Translations under genes and position numbers: made by a program
Assembly (NCBI GenBank): GCA_018262285.1
Contig: JAGTRX010000005.1
Span: 1-64,000, forward strand
Reading direction: 5' to 3'
Length of the DNA stretch: 64,000 nt
DNA from: Pseudomonadota bacterium
GTDB lineage: Bacteria; Pseudomonadota; Gammaproteobacteria; Burkholderiales; Rhodocyclaceae
Part shown: piece after piece, positions 229 through 7,788 of the stretch
Position numbering within the stretch: position 1 is the first letter of the stretch
Layout: every line of letters begins with the position of its first letter
Notes under the pieces: model-generated
What the model saw: the letters and a program-made list of their open reading frames with translations, nothing else
The model's database searches: none
Told to the model about the DNA's origin: nothing

Positions 229-875
229 GGTGATTGCTCCACTGCCCGTCGAAAGGCATCGATGATGGTTTGAATGGTTGAGGTTTTAATCTTTAGCGCC
301 GCCTGGTTCACGACCAGACGACTGGAAATGGGCATGATCTCTTCGACGGCGACGAGGTTGTTGGCTTTCAACGTGCCACCCGTCGACACCAGATCGACAA
401 TGGCATCGGCCAGACCGACCAGCGGTGCCAGTTCCATCGAGCCGTAAAGTTTGATCAAATCAACATGGACGCCCTTGGCGGCAAAATGTTCGCGCGCCGT
501 CTTGATATATTTACTCGCCACTTTGAGGCGGGCACCCTGCTTGACGGCATTCTGGTAGTCGAAACCGGCCGGCACCGCCACCATCATGCGACAGGCGGCA
601 ATTTTAAGGTCGAGCGGCGCGTACAGTCCTTCGCCGCCGTGCTCGATCAACACATCCTTGCCGGCCACGCCCAGATCGGCGGCGCCGTATTGCACATAGG
701 TCGGCACATCGGAAGCGCGGACAATGACCACACGCACACCCGGCTGATTGGTTTCGATAATCAGCTTGCGCGAGGTTTCGGGGTTTTCCTTCGGAACAAT
801 GCCGGCCGCCGCCAGCAACGGAAGCGTTTCTTCAAAGATGCGGCCCTTGGAAAGGGCTATAGTGATGCCGTTCAC
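225..875 (-). CDS. hisG: ATP phosphoribosyltransferase catalytic subunit, short form
   Basis: HisG joins ATP and PRPP, the committed step of histidine synthesis. The 216-aa protein begins [15 protein letters not shown] and contains [13 protein letters not shown] and the PRPP-binding stretch [17 protein letters not shown]. At 216 aa it lacks the C-terminal regulatory domain of the long form (about 300 aa). By family knowledge, short forms need the HisZ subunit for activity and feedback control; hisZ is not in the window. The start is GTG at 875. The promoter region upstream is the left copy of a duplicated segment that also occurs at 6785-6921. Confidence 0.96.
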
Positions 876-992
876 GGGGATTCTCAGAGTAAAATTTAAT
901 TATACTGCAACGCAGCAACTTGCCCACCGCCCCGACAACCACCAAACCCATCACGAAAGAGTATGAGCGCCATCACTTACGCCCTCGCTGCC
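865..992. repeat. left copy of island-flanking direct repeat
   Basis: This segment runs from the first hisG codons through the intergenic region into the start of a truncated transporter reading frame. It matches 6785-6921 in the same orientation. Over the first 68 bases I count 10 differences, all transitions; after that the match is patchier with small indels, then strong again from ATGAGCGCCATCA. The two copies bracket the RiPP genes. Confidence 0.85.
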
Positions 993-1093: not shown

Positions 1094-2518
1094 ATGCCCC
1101 CTGAATTGCTAATGTCCTTCAAGCCCACCATCACGGTCTTTGCCGACGGCGATGACCTGCTGGCCGCCGACGAGGATCGGCACGCCCTGCGCCTGATTGC
1201 GCCGGCGGCTCCCCTGCGCCGCCTGCTTGAAGCCCTGCAGGCGGGCGCACAAAGCGCCGCCAGCCTGTGCCGGAGTGAGCCTGGCGACCCCGATGCCGAA
1301 ATACTGCCCGTCGTTTTGCAGCGTCTGGCCGACAAGGGCTTTTTGCGCCTGACCTGGATGATCGGCGAACGCCGCCTGGCCACGCTCGAACCCTCTGCCA
1401 CCTTTCGCGTTCAGGAACCTGCCCTGACTGGCCGTTTCCGTCTTTCGCGCTTTGCCTTCCTGCGTCGCGAGGATGACGCCATGATCGTCGAAAGCGGTCT
1501 TGGCCATGCCCATCTCGTCCTCCATGATGAGATCCTGGCTGGACTCACCAGCCGGCTCGCCCGCCCGTATGATGCCGAAGAACTGTCGCGCTGCACGCCG
1601 GAAAGTGGCGACGAAGCATTTTCTGGCGCAGCCGCGACCACCCTGCTCTGGCTGCTCGTCAATGCCGGCGCTGCCTTTGCCTGTGACGAGCAGGGGCAAA
1701 TCGAGGAAGACCAGCGCACGGCTCTGCGCCAATGGGAATTCCACGATCTTCTTTTCCACAGCCGCAGCCGCGCCGGCCGTTACGGCAGGCCGTTTGGCGT
1801 TCCCTTCCGTTTTCTCGGCAAAATTCCTGCCCTGCCCGCCAGCAAGCCGCCCATGTCGGCAACGCGGATCGCCCTGCCCCGACCCGATCTTGAAGCTCTG
1901 GCCAGAAGCGACCCGCCCTTCTCGGCCGTCAGCGAGTCCCGCGCTTCCCTGCGCCCGGACAGGCGCCTGCCGCTGACACTCGACCAGCTGGCCGAATTTC
2001 TCTACCGCAGCCTGCGCATGCGCAAACTGCTGCCCGCCCAGCCTGAAAAAGGCCATCATTACGAAGCCAGCTTTCGCCCCTGCTGCTCGGGTGGCGCCAT
2101 TCACCCGCTGGAAGCCTATCTCGCCGTCCAGCAAGTCGAAGGGCTGGCACCCGGTTTTTACCATTACGATGCCCGCGATCATGTACTGGAACACCTGTCT
2201 GGGCTGACGCCACCAGTGCAACGCCTGCTGGCCGACACCTCGGCCGCCATGAACCTCGCCGGACCGGCCGATGTGTCGCTGACGCTGGCCGCCCGTGTTC
2301 CGCGCGTGACCTGGAAATACCAGTCCTTCGCCTACGCCCTCATCCTCAAGGACGTCGGTGCCCTCTACCAGCAAATGAATCTGGTGGCGACTGCACAGGG
2401 ACTCGCGGCCTGCGCCATCGGCACCGGTAATTTCGAAGCATTCGCCCAAGCCTCCGGGCTCGACCCCTGCGAGGAAACCGCCGTCGGCGAGTTTGTCCTC
2501 TGCGGCCGCCCGGCTTGA
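1094..2518 (+). CDS. SagB-type FMN-dependent azoline dehydrogenase of a RiPP cluster
   Basis: The C-terminal half (about residues 250-474) is a nitroreductase-fold SagB/McbC-type domain: a flavin-site stretch FRPCCSGGAIHPLEAYLAV near residue 328 and WKYQSFAYALILKDVGALYQ near residue 407, holding the Lys-Tyr pair typical of azoline oxidases. Such enzymes oxidise thiazoline/oxazoline rings to thiazole/oxazole after a YcaO cyclodehydratase has made them. The N-terminal 200 residues resemble the substrate-docking region of SagB-like proteins (weak, by eye). AGGAG at 1084-1088 sits well for ATG 1094. The precursor gene follows 123 bp downstream on the same strand, and the YcaO partner is convergent at 4362-6677. 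Confidence 0.88.
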   Translation: MPPELLMSFKPTITVFADGDDLLAADEDRHALRLIAPAAPLRRLLEALQAGAQSAASLCRSEPGDPDAEILPVVLQRLADKGFLRLTWMIGERRLATLEPSATFRVQEPALTGRFRLSRFAFLRREDDAMIVESGLGHAHLVLHDEILAGLTSRLARPYDAEELSRCTPESGDEAFSGAAATTLLWLLVNAGAAFACDEQGQIEEDQRTALRQWEFHDLLFHSRSRAGRYGRPFGVPFRFLGKIPALPASKPPMSATRIALPRPDLEALARSDPPFSAVSESRASLRPDRRLPLTLDQLAEFLYRSLRMRKLLPAQPEKGHHYEASFRPCCSGGAIHPLEAYLAVQQVEGLAPGFYHYDARDHVLEHLSGLTPPVQRLLADTSAAMNLAGPADVSLTLAARVPRVTWKYQSFAYALILKDVGALYQQMNLVATAQGLAACAIGTGNFEAFAQASGLDPCEETAVGEFVLCGRPA

Positions 2519-2641
2519 AAGCAGCATTTTTTCGGTAATTTTTCCTTGCGCAGGGTCACCGCGAAGCGTATTTTGACGGGGTATAAATTGTTTCATCAGC
2601 CCAGCCGTATTTTCGGCAACTCACATCAAGGAGGATGCAGC

Positions 2642-3364
2642 ATGAATAACCGCCCCATCAACGACGAGGAACTGTCCGCTTCTGCCAGTGCGAACGTGTC
2701 TTGTTTTCGTTGCATGAACCCCACGGGACTGCAGGACGAAGACCTGGCCAACTGCACCGAGGGTCAAGGACGATGCGCTGCATGCGCATGCCGCATCCCA
2801 GAAGTGCAGGACGAGGAACTCACAGCCTTGTCGGCTTACCCCTGCACGACCTGTAGCAATCTCTGCAGTAGAAATAATCCAGCAGCATTTCATGACGAAG
2901 AACTCACAGCATGGTCGGCTACCCCCTACGCAGCCCGTATCTGCACCTTCGTAGTGGAGAAAGACGAAGACTTGTCCATGAATGCAGAAGCCCAACGGCA
3001 GTGCTTTTACTGCCGGCCATCTCCGGCCGAGCTTCAGGACGAAGACTTGGCCATGAATGCTACCCAAATGCATTGTGGCGCTTGTTTCTGCACACACACA
3101 CAGGTCAAAGTGCAGGACGAAGACTTGTCCATCAAGTTGGAGGTTCAACGACAGTGTATTCGACAGTGTATTTGCAACCACCGGTCTCCGGCTGAGGTTC
3201 AGGACGAAGATTTAGCGATCAAGGCAGAGGCACCAGTGTGCATCGTGTGCCGCCTCTCACCTGCCGAAATGCAGGACGAGGAACTCGCCAGTGCGCCGGA
3301 ATTACAGCTTCGCCAGTGTTACCGCTGCGCCAGTCCAAGCTCTGCCGACCTACCGACAGACTGA
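2642..3364 (+). CDS. multi-core Cys-rich RiPP precursor with nine DE(E/D)L units
   Basis: 240 aa starting MNNRPINDEEL behind a strong AAGGAGG (2628-2634, 7-nt spacing). No enzyme domain, signal peptide or membrane segment. The motif DE(E/D)L recurs nine times, its Asp at residues 8, 32, 57, 85, 108, 133, 159, 188 and 212 (period 23-29), usually preceded by Q. Each is followed by 8-15 residues and then a Cys cluster: CFRC, CAACAC, CTTCSNLC, a lone C at 101, CFYC, CGACFC, CIRQCIC, CIVC, CYRC; 22 Cys in total. Several units end in PAE, PE, PAA or PTG just before the next motif. Inference: the YcaO/SagB pair converts core Cys to thiazol(in)es, with DE(E/D)L as repeated recognition site. I recognise no described family. 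An alternative is an unmodified metal-binding protein. Confidence 0.85.
   Translation: MNNRPINDEELSASASANVSCFRCMNPTGLQDEDLANCTEGQGRCAACACRIPEVQDEELTALSAYPCTTCSNLCSRNNPAAFHDEELTAWSATPYAARICTFVVEKDEDLSMNAEAQRQCFYCRPSPAELQDEDLAMNATQMHCGACFCTHTQVKVQDEDLSIKLEVQRQCIRQCICNHRSPAEVQDEDLAIKAEAPVCIVCRLSPAEMQDEELASAPELQLRQCYRCASPSSADLPTD
2663..3286 (+). repeat. nine imperfect tandem repeat units inside the precursor gene
   Basis: Units begin at the DE(E/D)L codons, often written caggacgaagacttg. Units 5 to 8 are closest to each other at DNA level (gacgaagacttg followed by tccatgaatgc or gccatgaatgc recurs), which suggests recent unit duplication; units 1 to 4 are more diverged. Unit lengths are 24, 25, 28, 23, 25, 26, 29 and 24 codons; the ninth unit runs to the stop. 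Confidence 0.88.
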
Positions 3365-3383
3365 CCAATCAACCAACCAGCAA

Positions 3384-3418
3384 ACGGGCGTTTCCCCGCG
3401 AGGAGACGCCCGTTTTTT
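3384..3418 (+). terminator. rho-independent terminator after the precursor gene
   Basis: A 12-bp stem (acgggcgtttcc with ggagacgcccgt, one G-T pair), a six-base loop and a T6 run, 20 bp after the precursor stop. On the other strand only three T follow, so it may also weakly end the convergent acetyltransferase transcript. Confidence 0.88.
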
Positions 3419-3445: not shown

Positions 3446-4339
3446 TCAAGCCGGCGCTGCGTAGAACTCACAAGTGCCGACCTGCTGCCAGCCAAAGCGC
3501 TCCATCAAGGCAATCGAGGCACGATTGTTCGGCCGCACCAGCGCCCAGGGCGGCAGCTTGCAGCAGTCCTTGAGGCGCTCTAGCGAAAGCGCTGCAATCC
3601 AGTCTGCCAGGCTGCTTCCCCAGTGGCGGCGGGCAACGGCAATGCTGCTGAAAAAGCCGGAATCCGTACATTCCGAATAGCCAACCACACTACCGGTTTT
3701 TTCCTCAACCGCAACAATCATCCAGCTATCGGCGCTATCGAGGATATCGGCCAGCATCTCCCCGCTCGTCGGCGGAACCACGCCCTCATTGACAAAGGCT
3801 TTGTTCATCAATTCGGCAATCCCAGAATCGAACGCCGCATCGCCGCCGGTATAGTGGCGGCAGGAAAATCCGGGAACCGGCTCAACACTTGGTATTTTAT
3901 CGCCAGCGCCCATCACCAGGCTGGTTTCCAGATGAACAAAGTCGGTAGCCAGAAGAAATTGGCGCACATCGTCCTGAAAACCTGGAACCCCGGCAATCAT
4001 GCGGGGAACCCCCTGTTGGCGCAGCGCCGTCCCGACCACCGCCTTCAACGCCCGGCCTATGCCCTGACGGCGGCTTCCTTTCCGCACCCAGAACATCAAC
4101 ATCTGGCTGCAGTCTTGATAAAACGGCCGGCGACCGGCGGCCATGACACCTTCAACGCAATCGCCGCGGCGGGCAACCAGCACCACGCTGTTTTGGCGGA
4201 AAGGCTCGTCCACCATCGACTGCCACATGGAACGCATGGGCGCGTTCTCAACCAGCAGTTGTTCTTCGCCAAGCATGCGCGCCAGCGCTGCATAGTGCTC
4301 CGGCGCAAGCGTTTCGATGATGAGTTCTGGGGGTGGCAT
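3446..4339 (-). CDS. tandem GNAT-family N-acetyltransferase in the RiPP island
   Basis: 297 aa with two GNAT folds. The N-terminal one carries the acetyl-CoA loop RRQGIG near residue 90-95. The C-terminal one ends with the usual PNNRASIALMERFGW helix, but its expected acetyl-CoA loop reads ARRHWGSSLAD, so that site looks degenerate. GNATs transfer acetyl groups from acetyl-CoA to amines. The gene lies 22 bp downstream of the YcaO gene on the same strand, so the two are probably co-transcribed, convergent to the precursor. Possible roles, all inference: N-acetylation of the mature peptides, self-protection, or an unrelated passenger. Confidence 0.8.
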   Translation of the reverse strand: MPPPELIIETLAPEHYAALARMLGEEQLLVENAPMRSMWQSMVDEPFRQNSVVLVARRGDCVEGVMAAGRRPFYQDCSQMLMFWVRKGSRRQGIGRALKAVVGTALRQQGVPRMIAGVPGFQDDVRQFLLATDFVHLETSLVMGAGDKIPSVEPVPGFSCRHYTGGDAAFDSGIAELMNKAFVNEGVVPPTSGEMLADILDSADSWMIVAVEEKTGSVVGYSECTDSGFFSSIAVARRHWGSSLADWIAALSLERLKDCCKLPPWALVRPNNRASIALMERFGWQQVGTCEFYAAPA

Positions 4340-4361: not shown

Positions 4362-6677
4362 TCAAAGGAAGAAGGGGATGGGATTGAGTTCGCTTTCGTC
4401 GGCCGGACGGTCGCGCCAGCCCATTCTGACCGGAACCTCGTACAACCTGGACGCGCCGCGCCGGTTCCAGAAATGGCAAAGGCCGGGCACGGCTACTCGC
4501 ACGCACGATAGTGGCAGGTCGGGGCGGCCGAGATCCTGCACAATGAAATCGTGCTTGTCCGCTACCAGCGCGATACAGTGGCGCAGGGCATCGGCGAGCG
4601 TCGCAAAATGTGGCGGCGGCAGATCGCGCACATCCAGCGGTGGTTCATCCGCCGCTTGCAGATAGGGGTGGCCAGACAGGGTTTCCTGATCGATCCATTG
4701 CTGGAAATCCGGATCGGCGGTGGACGCCGATTTGCCGTTCTGGTGGTCAAACAGCAGGATCTGGTTAAGTTCGGTCAGGGCGCGCAAGGCAGCCAGCCGG
4801 CCATCGAGATGGGCGCCAAAACCCATCAGGATGCGGCCGCCGGAATGGGTGGCGGAAAGCGCGACCGCCACCGGAATACCGAGGTCGGTGGTCAGGTCGA
4901 GCAGATGGAAGTTGCGGCCAATCGAGGCGTAATGTGCCTGCATGCGGGCGATGAAGGCGTCGTCCAGACCAGCGGTGGAAATGGCGCGCCGTTGCAGGCG
5001 GTTGTACCACCAGAGGCTGATGGCGTCGCGCTCGACGAGTTCAAGAAAACCTTGCAGGATAGCTTCTTCCAGGCTGCCACCGGAAGCGCAGCCGTTGGAG
5101 TCGGCAAAACAGAAGGGATGGTCGCCGGGCAGCCTATCGGCACGGTAGTCGAAATGGCAAAAGCGACTTGGCAGCCAACGTTCGGCATCGTCCCTGAGCG
5201 ACCACGCCGGCGACCAGTCGATAATGGCCTCTTCACGGAAAGGCTCGGGGATGTGACCCATGTCGCCCAAGCTTTGGTTCAGGGTTTGGCGTTCTGCGTA
5301 CTGGCGGGCGCTGAACTGGAGCAGCAGACGGGGGTCGGGCGCACAATCGCCGAGATCGCGCCAGCGCGCCTGCCGCCGCCTTTCGCTGCCGGACCACTGG
5401 CAGGCGTGGCGCTCGATGGCTTCGGCCAGGCAACTGATCCTGGCCTGCGCGTCGCTCAGTCCCTTGCCGGATGCGCCACCCGGACGGCCGAGCGTGCGGT
5501 TTTGCCGTGGGTCGGCCGGAGCACTGGCGCCCTGTGAGGCGGAATAGACGAACAAGCCGTCGGCAGGCGAGGTGAACTGGATGGCGGAGACAATACCAGT
5601 CAGCGGGCTGACGATGGTTTCCAGCTTTTGCAGCACGTCCGCCGGTTCCAGCGCGCGCCAGCCACCGTCTGCGTCGCGCAGGATGGAATCCCCGGCCAGG
5701 ATTACAGGCCTTGGGCGATCTTCCTGCCCGCTGACTGGCGTGCCGCAAGACGGGCAGTCGGCAAAACGGGGCAGCGGGTGGAGTTCACGCGCCGCTTCGG
5801 CGGTCGTCCAGGAAAGCAGATGGCGTTCGATATCCTGACGGCGCCCCAGGGCGTATTCGGCAAGCTCACGCGCCGCCAGCGCTTGCGCCAGCGCCAGCGT
5901 TGCCTTCGTCCAGGCACGCGCCGGGCGTGGACCCGATGGCGTAGGCGACACGACGCGGTCGCCGGGGCGGTGCTCAACCATGCGGCGCACCAGGCAGTGA
6001 TAACAGGCGCCACCTTCAACATGCGGCGCAATGACCGGGCCAAGCGAGGGGCGCAAGCCGCCTGGCTTGAAGGGAATCCAGGCCTTGCCAGCTTTTTGCG
6101 CCTGTTCCGCCCAATCGCGCAGCCCCGGCTGCAGGTAATCTTCGACCACGACGAGGGTGAGCGTGGCCGTTTCCGGTGTGGTAACGGTCAACCCTTCGGA
6201 GAGCAGCAGCGCGGCGAGGTCAGCCGAGGCAGCATGGCCGGCAGCGCCGTCACTGCCAAAGGGCAGAATAGCCACAGTAAACGCCGCCAGCTTGCCGGCG
6301 CTGGTTTCGGGTTCCAGGCCAGAGGCGCAAAGCCAGGCCAGGCGGGCGTGATCGGCGCGAGAATCGACCGGAATGACGTAGCCCTTGTTGACCATGGCAG
6401 CCAGGAAGTCGGCAAACGCATTTTCCTGCCCGGTACCCAACTTGGCCGCGAGGGCATGGATGATTTGGGCGCGGTTGTAGCGGCCATCGAGCAGGGGCAG
6501 GATGTGGACGTAGAACGGATCGTTGAGCTTGATGCTACGTTCTTCTGAAAGCAGCAAGAATTTGTTCCCGGTAAATTCGTGCAGTGAGAAATGCGGGGCA
6601 AGCATCAGGCGACTTTCGCCTGTGTCCGTGCCGGCAGTAGCGGACTGTTCGCCGGCGCGGGGCTTTATATTTTCCAT
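4362..6677 (-). CDS. fused RRE / E1-like / YcaO azoline cyclodehydratase
   Basis: 771 aa from ATG 6677, chosen for GAGGA ten bases upstream; an in-frame ATG at 6746 would add 23 residues. Residues about 25-105 look like a winged-helix RiPP recognition element (LLLSEERSIKL, LLDGRYNRAQII, NKGYVIPV). About 110-345 is an E1/ThiF-like scaffold with two zinc-type Cys pairs, CYHC and CPSC. About 360-771 is YcaO: CLAEAIERHAC, then SNGCASGGSLEEAI and ELVERDAISLWW for ATP/Mg. This class activates backbone amides with ATP and cyclises Cys/Ser/Thr to azolines. The C-terminus is NPIPFFL, not the PxPxP end common in azoline-forming YcaO proteins. The partner dehydrogenase and substrate are encoded convergently. 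Confidence 0.93.
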   Translation of the reverse strand: MENIKPRAGEQSATAGTDTGESRLMLAPHFSLHEFTGNKFLLLSEERSIKLNDPFYVHILPLLDGRYNRAQIIHALAAKLGTGQENAFADFLAAMVNKGYVIPVDSRADHARLAWLCASGLEPETSAGKLAAFTVAILPFGSDGAAGHAASADLAALLLSEGLTVTTPETATLTLVVVEDYLQPGLRDWAEQAQKAGKAWIPFKPGGLRPSLGPVIAPHVEGGACYHCLVRRMVEHRPGDRVVSPTPSGPRPARAWTKATLALAQALAARELAEYALGRRQDIERHLLSWTTAEAARELHPLPRFADCPSCGTPVSGQEDRPRPVILAGDSILRDADGGWRALEPADVLQKLETIVSPLTGIVSAIQFTSPADGLFVYSASQGASAPADPRQNRTLGRPGGASGKGLSDAQARISCLAEAIERHACQWSGSERRRQARWRDLGDCAPDPRLLLQFSARQYAERQTLNQSLGDMGHIPEPFREEAIIDWSPAWSLRDDAERWLPSRFCHFDYRADRLPGDHPFCFADSNGCASGGSLEEAILQGFLELVERDAISLWWYNRLQRRAISTAGLDDAFIARMQAHYASIGRNFHLLDLTTDLGIPVAVALSATHSGGRILMGFGAHLDGRLAALRALTELNQILLFDHQNGKSASTADPDFQQWIDQETLSGHPYLQAADEPPLDVRDLPPPHFATLADALRHCIALVADKHDFIVQDLGRPDLPLSCVRVAVPGLCHFWNRRGASRLYEVPVRMGWRDRPADESELNPIPFFL

Positions 6678-6784
6678 GTCGATTTTTTCCTCGTCTATCC
6701 AAGGGTCAAGTATACCGCCTGTGCCAACCGGTTTGCTCGCTAGCAAGGACTGAGCCTAGTCAAAATGCGGCTTCTGGAGGGGAC

Positions 6785-6921
6785 ATGCCGCTCACAGGAA
6801 TTCTCGGAGTAAAATTTGACTGTACTGCAACGTGGCAACTTGCCCACCGTCCCAACCCGCCCTGAACCCACCAAGAAAAACGAGAGAACGCATGAGCGCC
6901 ATCATTTACGCCCTCACCGCC
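6785..6921. repeat. right copy of island-flanking direct repeat
   Basis: Counterpart of 865-992. It begins with a relic of the hisG start (atgccgctcacagg), continues through the shared intergenic sequence including ggagtaaaattt and gcaacttgcccaccg, and ends in the first ten codons of the transporter. It supplies the transporter's present promoter region. Confidence 0.85.
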
Positions 6922-7788
6922 AATGCCGGCATTGCCGCCAGCAAGGCTGCCGCCGCCGTCTACACCGGTTCCACCGCCATGATGGCCGAAGCTGTCCATA
7001 GCGGCGCCGACTGCGCCAACCAACTGTTGCTGCTGTTCGGGCTCAAACAATCCAGGCGTCCGCCCTCGCCCCAACACCCGCTGGGCTACGGCAAAGCGAC
7101 CTACTTCTGGTCATTCATGGTCGCCGTCATGCTCTTTACACTCGGCGGCGCTTTTTCGATGTACGAAGGCATCCACAAGTTGATGCACCCCGAACCCCTG
7201 CATGACCCGTGGATTGCCATTATCGTGCTCAGTGTCGGCATTGTGCTGGAGGCCTGGTCTTTGCGCGGCTGCATCCATGAAATTCACGAAAAAGCCGGCA
7301 AGGTATCGCTGATTTCCTATTTCCGCGAAAGCCGCGAATCGGAACTGATTGTCATCATGGGCGAGGACATCGCGGCTCTTGCCGGTCTGGCGCTGGCGCT
7401 CATCGCCATCCTGCTGGCAATTCTGACTGGCAATCCGATCTTTGATGCGCTCGGCAGCGTTGGCGTTGGCGCGCTCCTCATCATCGTCGCCATCGGCGTC
7501 GGCGCCCAGGTCAAGAGCCTGCTGGTCGGTGAATCCGCCGCACCGGAACGCGAACAGGCCATCTCCCACTGGTTGGCTGCCCGCCCCGAAATTGCCGAAA
7601 TGTATAGCCTGATCACTTACCAGATGGGCAGCTATATCTTCGTCGCCGTCAAGGCGCGCATGGCTGAGTCGGAATCCGCCAGACACCTGACCGATGCCAT
7701 CAATGTCGTGCAGGATGGACTCAAGCAAAACTTTCCGGAAATTCGCTGGATCTTTTTCGAGCCCGACGATAAACGCGACAATCGTTAA
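6892..7788 (+). CDS. cation diffusion facilitator (CDF) family transporter
   Basis: 298 aa beginning MSAIIYALTANAGIAASK. CDF proteins are inner-membrane antiporters exporting divalent metals such as Zn, Co, Fe or Mn against protons. Several hydrophobic spans are visible, with AEAVHSGADCANQLLLLFG (HxxxD-type metal site in the second span), a second polar pair around MGEDIAALAGLALALI, and a soluble C-terminal domain. I chose ATG 6892 over the upstream in-frame ATG at 6832 because the protein then starts at the conserved region and matches the truncated copy at 963. Metal specificity cannot be told. It was probably the original neighbour of hisG before the RiPP island arrived. Confidence 0.9.
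   Translation: MSAIIYALTANAGIAASKAAAAVYTGSTAMMAEAVHSGADCANQLLLLFGLKQSRRPPSPQHPLGYGKATYFWSFMVAVMLFTLGGAFSMYEGIHKLMHPEPLHDPWIAIIVLSVGIVLEAWSLRGCIHEIHEKAGKVSLISYFRESRESELIVIMGEDIAALAGLALALIAILLAILTGNPIFDALGSVGVGALLIIVAIGVGAQVKSLLVGESAAPEREQAISHWLAARPEIAEMYSLITYQMGSYIFVAVKARMAESESARHLTDAINVVQDGLKQNFPEIRWIFFEPDDKRDNR

What the first reader, a model, noticed from the sequence alone, without database searches (positions are those of the whole stretch)
2642..3364. Multi-core RiPP precursor: nine DE(E/D)L-spaced Cys-rich cores with almost no leader
Seen: nine units of 23-29 residues, each with (x)(Q/N/H/K)DE(E/D)L, a spacer and a Cys cluster (mostly CxxC, some CxxCxC or CxxxCxC). The first motif is only seven residues from the N-terminus, so there is no classical leader. 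Known: azol(in)e peptide precursors usually have one leader and one core; repeated recognition sites around cores are known in cyanobactins and some other RiPPs. Inference: each unit carries its own recognition site and yields a small peptide with two or three thiazol(in)es, so one gene could give about nine related products. I know of no described family with this layout.
Basis: partly seen in the sequence, partly recalled or inferred. Interest (0 to 1): 0.95.

Follow-up and report, generated by a model that had tools for sequence, protein, structure and literature searches.

The report
Leader-per-core thiazole-peptide precursor array
This bacterial gene encodes nine short cysteine-containing repeats, each led by its own predicted enzyme-docking motif, and it sits beside genes for enzymes that likely turn cysteines into thiazole rings, so a single gene would likely yield a set of related small peptides; relatives in nine other genomes carry up to about 25 such repeats.

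Summary
Confirmed and extended. The ORF at 2642-3364 (240 aa) is nine units of 23-29 aa, each opened by DE(E/D)L; eight hold a Cys cluster, unit 4 one Cys. Beside it lie a SagB/ThcOx dehydrogenase, a tandem GNAT and a docking-E1-YcaO fusion whose nearest solved relatives are the cyanobactin heterocyclases LynD and TruD. Starting from that enzyme I found 13 further precursors of this build in nine other genomes (all Pseudomonadota), with about 3 to 25 units; YcaO, SagB, GNAT and precursor are the only genes common to the six lineages compared. In the window, 8 of 9 motifs also match the L(X)4L leader motif published for this enzyme type; in some relatives that spacing shifts or fails. At two Cys sites examined, replacements are mostly Ser or Thr, as heterocycle sites would allow. 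Best reading: every unit carries its own docking site and core and is likely cyclodehydrated, oxidised, released and N-acetylated. Chemistry, releasing protease and product are untested. The four-gene cassette is an insertion between hisG and a CDF gene. I judge it a new variant of a known kind (multi-core azole RiPPs); ten paper searches showed no family with this layout.

The parts
2642..3364 (+). multi-core precursor, 240 aa, 22 Cys, nine units, no Pfam or NCBIfam hit
2628..2635 (+). Shine-Dalgarno AAGGAGGA of the precursor
   Evidence: read from the sequence
2663..2734 (+). unit 1 DEELSASASANVSCFRCMNPTGLQ
2735..2809 (+). unit 2 DEDLANCTEGQGRCAACACRIPEVQ
2810..2893 (+). unit 3 DEELTALSAYPCTTCSNLCSRNNPAAFH
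2894..2962 (+). unit 4 DEELTAWSATPYAARICTFVVEK (one Cys only)
2963..3037 (+). unit 5 DEDLSMNAEAQRQCFYCRPSPAELQ
3038..3115 (+). unit 6 DEDLAMNATQMHCGACFCTHTQVKVQ
3116..3202 (+). unit 7 DEDLSIKLEVQRQCIRQCICNHRSPAEVQ
3203..3274 (+). unit 8 DEDLAIKAEAPVCIVCRLSPAEMQ
3275..3361 (+). unit 9 DEELASAPELQLRQCYRCASPSSADLPTD
3382..3415 (+). terminator-like hairpin, 14 pairs, then T run
1094..2518 (+). SagB/ThcOx-type dehydrogenase, predicted azoline-to-azole oxidation
   Evidence: TIGR03605 152.6 bits against cut-off 78.4; PF22767 and PF00881
3446..4339 (-). tandem GNAT N-acetyltransferase, predicted N-acetylation of released peptides (or self-protection)
   Evidence: PF00583; AlphaFold2 model pLDDT 90.6; best solved matches are tandem GNATs
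4362..6746 (-). docking (RRE) / E1-like / YcaO fusion cyclodehydratase; listed start TTG 6746, ATG at 6677 likelier (first 40 residues low-confidence; matches to relatives begin later)
   Evidence: TIGR03604 224.1 against 219.25, TIGR03882 85.5 against 36.9; LynD 4v1v TM 0.81/0.85
865..958 (+). left copy of a direct repeat (hisG 5' end and intergenic; start of a CDF remnant just beyond): insertion scar
6785..6878 (+). right copy of that direct repeat, 80% identical, overlapping the listed start of the CDF ORF 6832-7788

Best explanation
The gene encodes nine tandem units and is the likely substrate of the neighbouring LynD/TruD-type YcaO enzyme, whose docking domain is predicted to bind the hydrophobic-x-D-E-(D/E)-L motif that opens each unit and whose catalytic domain would close that unit's cysteines into thiazolines. 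The SagB-type enzyme would then oxidise them to thiazoles. The units would be cut apart by a protease that is not in the cassette (a general host peptidase, or the YcaO itself in the way reported for MusD), and the tandem GNAT would acetylate the freed N-termini. Docking site and core thus travel together as one module of about 20-30 residues, and arrays change by whole modules. Shown by sequence and comparison: the units, the cassette, its recurrence, the motif match in the window, the enzyme families. Inferred: docking, ring formation, oxidation, release, acetylation.
For: YcaO, SagB, GNAT and precursor are the only genes common to the six lineages compared (9 loci given, YcaO of one lineage at another site; remaining shared frames are opposite-strand readings of these genes or shared by at most three lineages). 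Of the 80 loci kept, 8 hold the GNAT (tblastn E 1e-5) and the same 8 hold a multi-unit precursor in a six-frame scan: their main precursors score 63-384 bits, the best ORF of the other 72 loci 11.0, the best in reversed DNA 10.1. A profile of the window's nine units alone still finds L003 (38.6) and one precursor of L002 (32.2) against 13.3 for the control. In the genome of L007, whose YcaO has no SagB or GNAT beside it, a 633-aa precursor with 25 motifs and 58 Cys lies with SagB and GNAT on another contig. Two T. profundimaris strains hold a second precursor with its own GNAT next to it. Motif: 8 of 9 window units have a hydrophobic residue five places before the Leu (3.5e-5 from the protein's own composition), the L(X)4L motif that extends the docking-domain sheet of LynD; in MprC's leader Val or Phe rescue loss of the Leu (PMC12455567, passages). 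The YcaO model matches LynD structures titled as in complex with substrate and cofactor. At the distal Cys before an R-I/V-S type tail (five precursors) 34 of 39 units have Cys and the 5 exceptions are Ser; in T. profundimaris-type units Thr stands at the third Cys in 5 of 11 distinct units and Ser at the second in 1 of 11. Unit number differs between close precursors. Precedents, read as passages: GodH, a GNAT, acetylates goadsporin; thiovarsolins come from a repeating core, without a cluster protease, and are N-acetylated.
Against: No product, mass or binding datum exists. No protease or exporter was recognised in the window's cassette; the genome's one S8 peptidase hit is on another contig. 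The hydrophobic -5 rule fails or weakens elsewhere: Chromatiaceae 1 of 4, Albimonas 3 of 8 and 0 of 4, L005 1 of 4, second Thalassospira precursors 0 of 3 and 0 of 3; in L003 it is 3 of 19, with the residue at -6 in 15 of 19. The first Cys of the T. profundimaris-type units is Gly in 3 of 11, and of 68 units split, 13 have one Cys and 4 none. The window-only profile does not lift L005, L009, L012, L013, the main precursors of L004 and L006, nor the second ones of L002, L004 and L006 over its control; L006's second precursor scores only 6.6 with the full unit profile. L010, L011 and L014, in the same YcaO clade, show neither precursor nor GNAT. The L012 and L013 precursors were looked for because the GNAT was there, and the unit profile includes them, so part of the 8-of-8 agreement is by construction.
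Confidence: 0.74

Rival explanations
1. The array is modified unit by unit but is never cut: the product is one long polypeptide bearing up to about 20 thiazoles, a multivalent molecule like repeat graspetides.
For: No protease recognised in the cassette. Graspetides with several modified repeats in one chain are known (passages and reference titles).
Against: Unit number differs between strains, and a GNAT lies directly next to 11 of the 14 precursors (not next to the two further precursors of the L002 genome, and separated by SagB in L146), which makes most sense if new N-termini are produced. Thiovarsolins are thought to be released by host peptidases without a cluster protease.
Confidence: 0.17
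2. A Cys-rich metal- or thiol-binding protein, unmodified, whose CxxC pairs bind metal; the YcaO and SagB act on something else.
For: CxxC is a metal-site pattern; a CDF metal transporter lies next to the cassette; the only PDB hit to the precursor is CRP1 (a LIM protein, recalled) at E 0.81, chance level.
Against: The CDF gene belongs to the host backbone: two genomes of the same genus have hisG and CDF side by side without the cassette. Precursors recur with YcaO, SagB and GNAT in six lineages. Cys gives way to Ser and Thr at sites examined. 13 of 68 units have a single Cys.
Confidence: 0.05
3. The YcaO makes thioamides or other backbone changes rather than azol(in)es.
For: YcaO enzymes can do this, and the thiovarsolin YcaO acts on a repeating core.
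Against: The enzyme passes the azole-type models TIGR03604 (narrowly, 224.1 against 219.25) and TIGR03882, a SagB/ThcOx dehydrogenase accompanies it, its solved relatives LynD and TruD are heterocyclases, and the repeated targets are Cys with some Ser/Thr.
Confidence: 0.04

Closest known systems
Cyanobactins (PatE with PatD/TruD/LynD; muscoride with MusD)
   Same: Closest heterocyclase by sequence and fold; several cores on one precursor; ThcOx-type oxidase; docking through a short leader motif.
   Different: Cyanobactins have one N-terminal leader with RSI for the heterocyclase and flank 1-4 cores with protease signals (PMC4663559, passages); here the docking motif itself is repeated before each core, the stretch before the first motif is seven residues in the window, no PatA/PatG-type protease was found in the cassette, and arrays have about 3 to 25 units.
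Goadsporin and other linear azol(in)e peptides (LAPs/TOMMs)
   Same: Cyclodehydratase, dehydrogenase and a GNAT that acetylates the N-terminus (PMC5303826, passages); that its cyclodehydratase is a docking-YcaO fusion is recalled.
   Different: Single leader and single core; goadsporin also has dehydroalanines and a peptidase-bearing transporter; no array.
Thiovarsolins (VarA/VarY/VarT)
   Same: YcaO product from an imperfectly repeating core, up to five repeats, no cluster protease, N-acetylated product (PMC6511847, passages).
   Different: Thioamide made with TfuA, tripeptide products, one predicted leader before the repeats, Actinobacteria.
Multi-core graspetides (AMdnA, plesiocin; chryseoviridin recalled)
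   Same: Several cores in one chain; an engineered precursor with two leaders gave more fully modified product (PMC13003496, passage), which fits the logic of repeated docking sites.
   Different: ATP-grasp ester/amide chemistry, not azoles; unrelated enzymes.
NHLP-leader azole RiPPs (MprE/MprC, NstC/NstD)
   Same: L(X)4L leader motif recognised by the docking domain of a YcaO (PMC12455567, passages).
   Different: Long folded leader (81 residues in MprE); separate precursor genes rather than one array.

Membership tests
[quoted passage not shown]
   TIGR03604 and TIGR03882 above cut-off in one protein; LynD/TruD fold
[quoted passage not shown]
   TIGR03605 above cut-off
[quoted passage not shown]
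   Seven residues before the first motif; leader-like motif repeated before each of nine cores
[quoted passage not shown]
   no chemistry available
Cyanobactins | PatA/PatG-type S8 proteases in the cluster | tested here: not met
   No peptidase among the genes shared by the loci; the one S8 hit of the genome is on contig C10, the window is C50
Cyanobactins | LynD/TruD-type heterocyclase | tested here: met
Cyanobactins | one leader with RSI, cores flanked by RSII/RSIII | tested here: not met
Thiovarsolins / thioamidated RiPPs | YcaO-TfuA pair | tested here: not met
   No TfuA hit among the six window proteins scanned; no further gene shared by the lineages
NHLP or Nif11 leader RiPPs | precursor hits an NHLP/Nif11 model | tested here: not met
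   No Pfam or NCBIfam family hits the window's precursor at E 0.1; three relatives on Pfam and seven on NCBIfam gave one hit, below its cut-off and to another family
Metallothionein-like metal protein | metal bound by free Cys | not testable with these tools
   sequence evidence speaks against it

The most novel reading that the evidence does not exclude
A new architecture of azole RiPPs in which leader and core are fused into one self-contained module of about 20-30 residues, and a gene is nothing but an array of such modules: the enzyme docks anew at each unit, modules are gained, lost and diversified independently, and one gene encodes a small library of N-acetylated thiazole peptides, up to about 25 in a marine alphaproteobacterium.
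Probability: 0.6. Interest if true: 0.87.

Novelty: new variant of a known kind. Interest (0 to 1): 0.8.

Why it matters
It would make an open question in RiPP biosynthesis directly testable: whether an enzyme works through a multi-core substrate from one leader or docks at each core. A natural module that carries its own docking site would also be a simple unit for building thiazole-peptide libraries, and strains with different unit numbers exist in Thalassospira. The family looks unannotated: the window's precursor hits no Pfam or NCBIfam model, nor do the relatives scanned above any cut-off, and its genes are easily missed in GC-rich genomes, as with Albimonas, where longer overlapping frames hid them from my first listing.

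Tried and rejected
Protein search with the window precursor alone found only itself; the profile of 11 precursors added six, two named Thalassospira and four unnamed but close to those in sequence. Tandem-repeat finding on DNA gave no array. My first motif scan of 80 loci found the two precursors of L002 and three chance-like ORFs; it missed L003 through my own length limit and the others because their motifs differ; those came from reading neighbouring frames. The CDF transporter as a metal link was rejected: it is next to hisG in relatives without the cassette. PHROGs hits to three precursors were weak and scattered. Plasmid records hold no relative of the precursor and only distant YcaO, all under 60% identity. 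No tRNA gene in the window. A sigma-70 consensus scan found no promoter before the precursor. A search for other conserved genes (protease, exporter) common to all lineages found none; a cyclic-peptide ABC exporter was identified beside L009 and L010, with relatives in Albimonas.

Full report
OBSERVATION. The ORF is there as described: 240 aa, 22 Cys, nine DE(E/D)L motifs, units of 23-29 aa, seven residues before the first motif. Shuffling the residues 100,000 times never gave more than two motifs. Unit 4 has only one Cys, so eight units carry a cluster. The frame has a Shine-Dalgarno run and a hairpin of 14 pairs after the stop. It matches no Pfam or NCBIfam family, and a search of about 5.8 billion proteins (2699 candidates scored) returned only itself. 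The motif is kept while its codons vary.

NEIGHBOURS. SagB/ThcOx dehydrogenase 1094-2518 (+), precursor 2642-3364 (+), tandem GNAT 3446-4339 (-), docking/E1/YcaO fusion 4362-6746 (-). The AlphaFold2 model of the fusion (33 sequences, mean pLDDT 82.1) matches LynD (4v1v, TM 0.81/0.85), TruD (4bs9) and MusD (7u58); a profile search of PDB sequences ranks the same three first. The GNAT model (11 sequences, pLDDT 90.6) matches tandem GNATs: the clavulanate-cluster protein, mycothiol synthase and, at rank 36, PamZ; that PamZ is a self-resistance enzyme is recalled.

CASSETTE BOUNDS. Two of three same-genus genomes have hisG and the CDF gene side by side with under 100 bases between them (L151, L153; in L150 neither CDF nor murA was found in the fetched stretch). 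In the window the four genes lie between these two, flanked by imperfect direct copies of the hisG-CDF junction (865-958 and 6785-6878, 94 nt, 80%), the left copy running on into the first codons of a CDF remnant. So the cassette is an insertion and the CDF gene is not part of it. In its own order, 2 of 399 genomes hold a YcaO match at E 1e-90: itself and one at 35% identity; of 61 genomes in the relatives search, itself included, only itself at E 1e-50.

RELATIVES. A profile of 33 YcaO fusions against genome contigs returned 80 loci, the best of 518 stretches that encode a relative. GNAT occurs in 8 of the 80 (L002-L006, L009, L012, L013; E 1e-5) and a multi-unit precursor in the same 8; the other 72 have no ORF above 11.0 bits, against 10.1 in reversed DNA and 63-384 for the main precursors. 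Second precursors found by eye score 16.4 (L004) and only 6.6 (L006) there; both stand next to a second GNAT. Whole-genome searches of 14 genomes (window, L002-L014) added a 633-aa precursor with 25 motifs in the genome of L007, with SagB and GNAT on another contig than its YcaO, and a third precursor in the genome of L002. Together: 14 precursors in 10 genomes: window 1; Rhodospirillales MAG 3; four Thalassospira 1, 2, 1, 2; Chromatiaceae MAG 1; two Albimonas 1 each; marine alphaproteobacterium 1. Negative cases in the same YcaO clade: L010, L011, L014 without precursor (E 0.01) or GNAT (E 1e-10); L008's genome has a partial GNAT match (7e-44) and a 58-aa ORF with one unit (14.1 bits), which I leave open. 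In the tree of 39 YcaO rows (window, L002-L039) the 9 cassette rows fall in one clade of 14 (100/100); the label needs two changes against a shuffled mean of 8.3, none of 500 shuffles as low; one gain is not shown. In an order of 297 genomes YcaO (E 1e-130) and precursor profile (E 1e-5) hit the same five genomes (only 12 candidate places per genome were scored, and most of those genomes supplied rows of the profile). In Thalassospira 5 of 29 genomes have a YcaO match, four at 51-54% identity and one at 35%. In 369 genomes of the class of the Chromatiaceae MAG only that MAG has it (E 1e-130).

UNIT ANATOMY. Over 70 motifs of 12 precursors (the motif patterns were chosen by me, so the acidic columns are partly by construction): acidic at -3, -2 and -1 in 74, 81 and 60%, Leu in 69 of 70, then mostly small residues and Pro, and Cys most often 9-11 residues after the Leu (29, 40, 20%) and again at 13-14. 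In the window 8 of 9 units have a hydrophobic residue at -5. This is the L(X)4L spacing described for PatE/LynD and MprE/MprC; in MprE7 Ala at both Leu abolished, and Val or Phe rescued, product (PMC12455567, passages). The -5 rule holds in L002 (7 of 7) and in the main precursors of L004 and L006 (7 of 7, 2 of 2), shifts to -6 in L003 (15 of 19), and is weak or absent in L005 (1 of 4), L009 (1 of 4), L012 (3 of 8), L013 (0 of 4) and the second Thalassospira precursors (0 of 3, 0 of 3). Of 68 units split, 13 have one Cys and 4 none. At the distal Cys before an R-I/V-S type tail (five precursors) 5 of 39 are replaced, all by Ser; in T. profundimaris-type units Thr stands at the third Cys (5 of 11 distinct units), Ser at the second (1 of 11) and Gly at the first (3 of 11). 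Ser and Thr are the other residues that such enzymes cyclise, so this leans towards ring formation rather than metal binding.

MODULE TURNOVER. Close T. profundimaris-type precursors carry different numbers of the NLA-type unit: L004 5, L006 2, P0043 3, P0042 3, P0046 2, P0047 1. P0042, P0046 and P0047 come from contigs of about 1 kb, where assembly may have collapsed repeats; L004, L006 and P0043 lie on long contigs.

MECHANISM. Shown: sequence, families, recurrence, motif match in the window. Inferred: docking at each unit, thiazoline formation, oxidation, release, N-acetylation. Release lacks a cassette enzyme. [quoted passage not shown] thiovarsolins are thought to be freed by host peptidases and N-acetylated (PMC6511847); GodH acetylates goadsporin (PMC5303826). 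A GNAT lies directly next to 11 of the 14 precursors.

NOVELTY. Papers seen as passages only: PMC4603692 (the term 'multiple core' not found), PMC5934393 (multi-core precursors called rare), PMC8939145, PMC4663559, PMC13003496, PMC10349150. Ten searches, judged by their listings, showed no azole family with a docking motif before each core; subscription papers are mostly outside that library. I therefore call it a new variant of a known kind.

Noticed in passing
window 865-958 and 6785-6878: The four-gene cassette is bracketed by 80% identical direct copies of the hisG-CDF junction, so recombination between them could remove it; the donor and means of insertion are unknown.
   Followed up: partly
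L009, L010, L012, L013 and parts of the sister loci among L007-L023: Beside the YcaO in several of these loci lie genes like SPFH (Band_7) and DUF697 proteins, small membrane proteins and a cyclic-peptide-export ABC transporter (TIGR01194; family scans run on L009 and L010 only); some of these loci have no visible precursor.
   Followed up: partly
L147 9314-9490 (+): 58-aa ORF with one EDLDGR-type unit in the genome of L008; perhaps a single-core relative, perhaps chance (14.1 bits).
   Followed up: no
L006 4793-5329 (-): 178-aa ORF with several GGLSTLxYGG-type repeats in Thalassospira profundimaris, unrelated to the arrays.
   Followed up: no
L004 1683-3147, L006 1328-2738: A second precursor-GNAT pair in the same neighbourhood, with more diverged units; in these strains each precursor has its own GNAT next to it.
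   Followed up: partly
   Followed up: no
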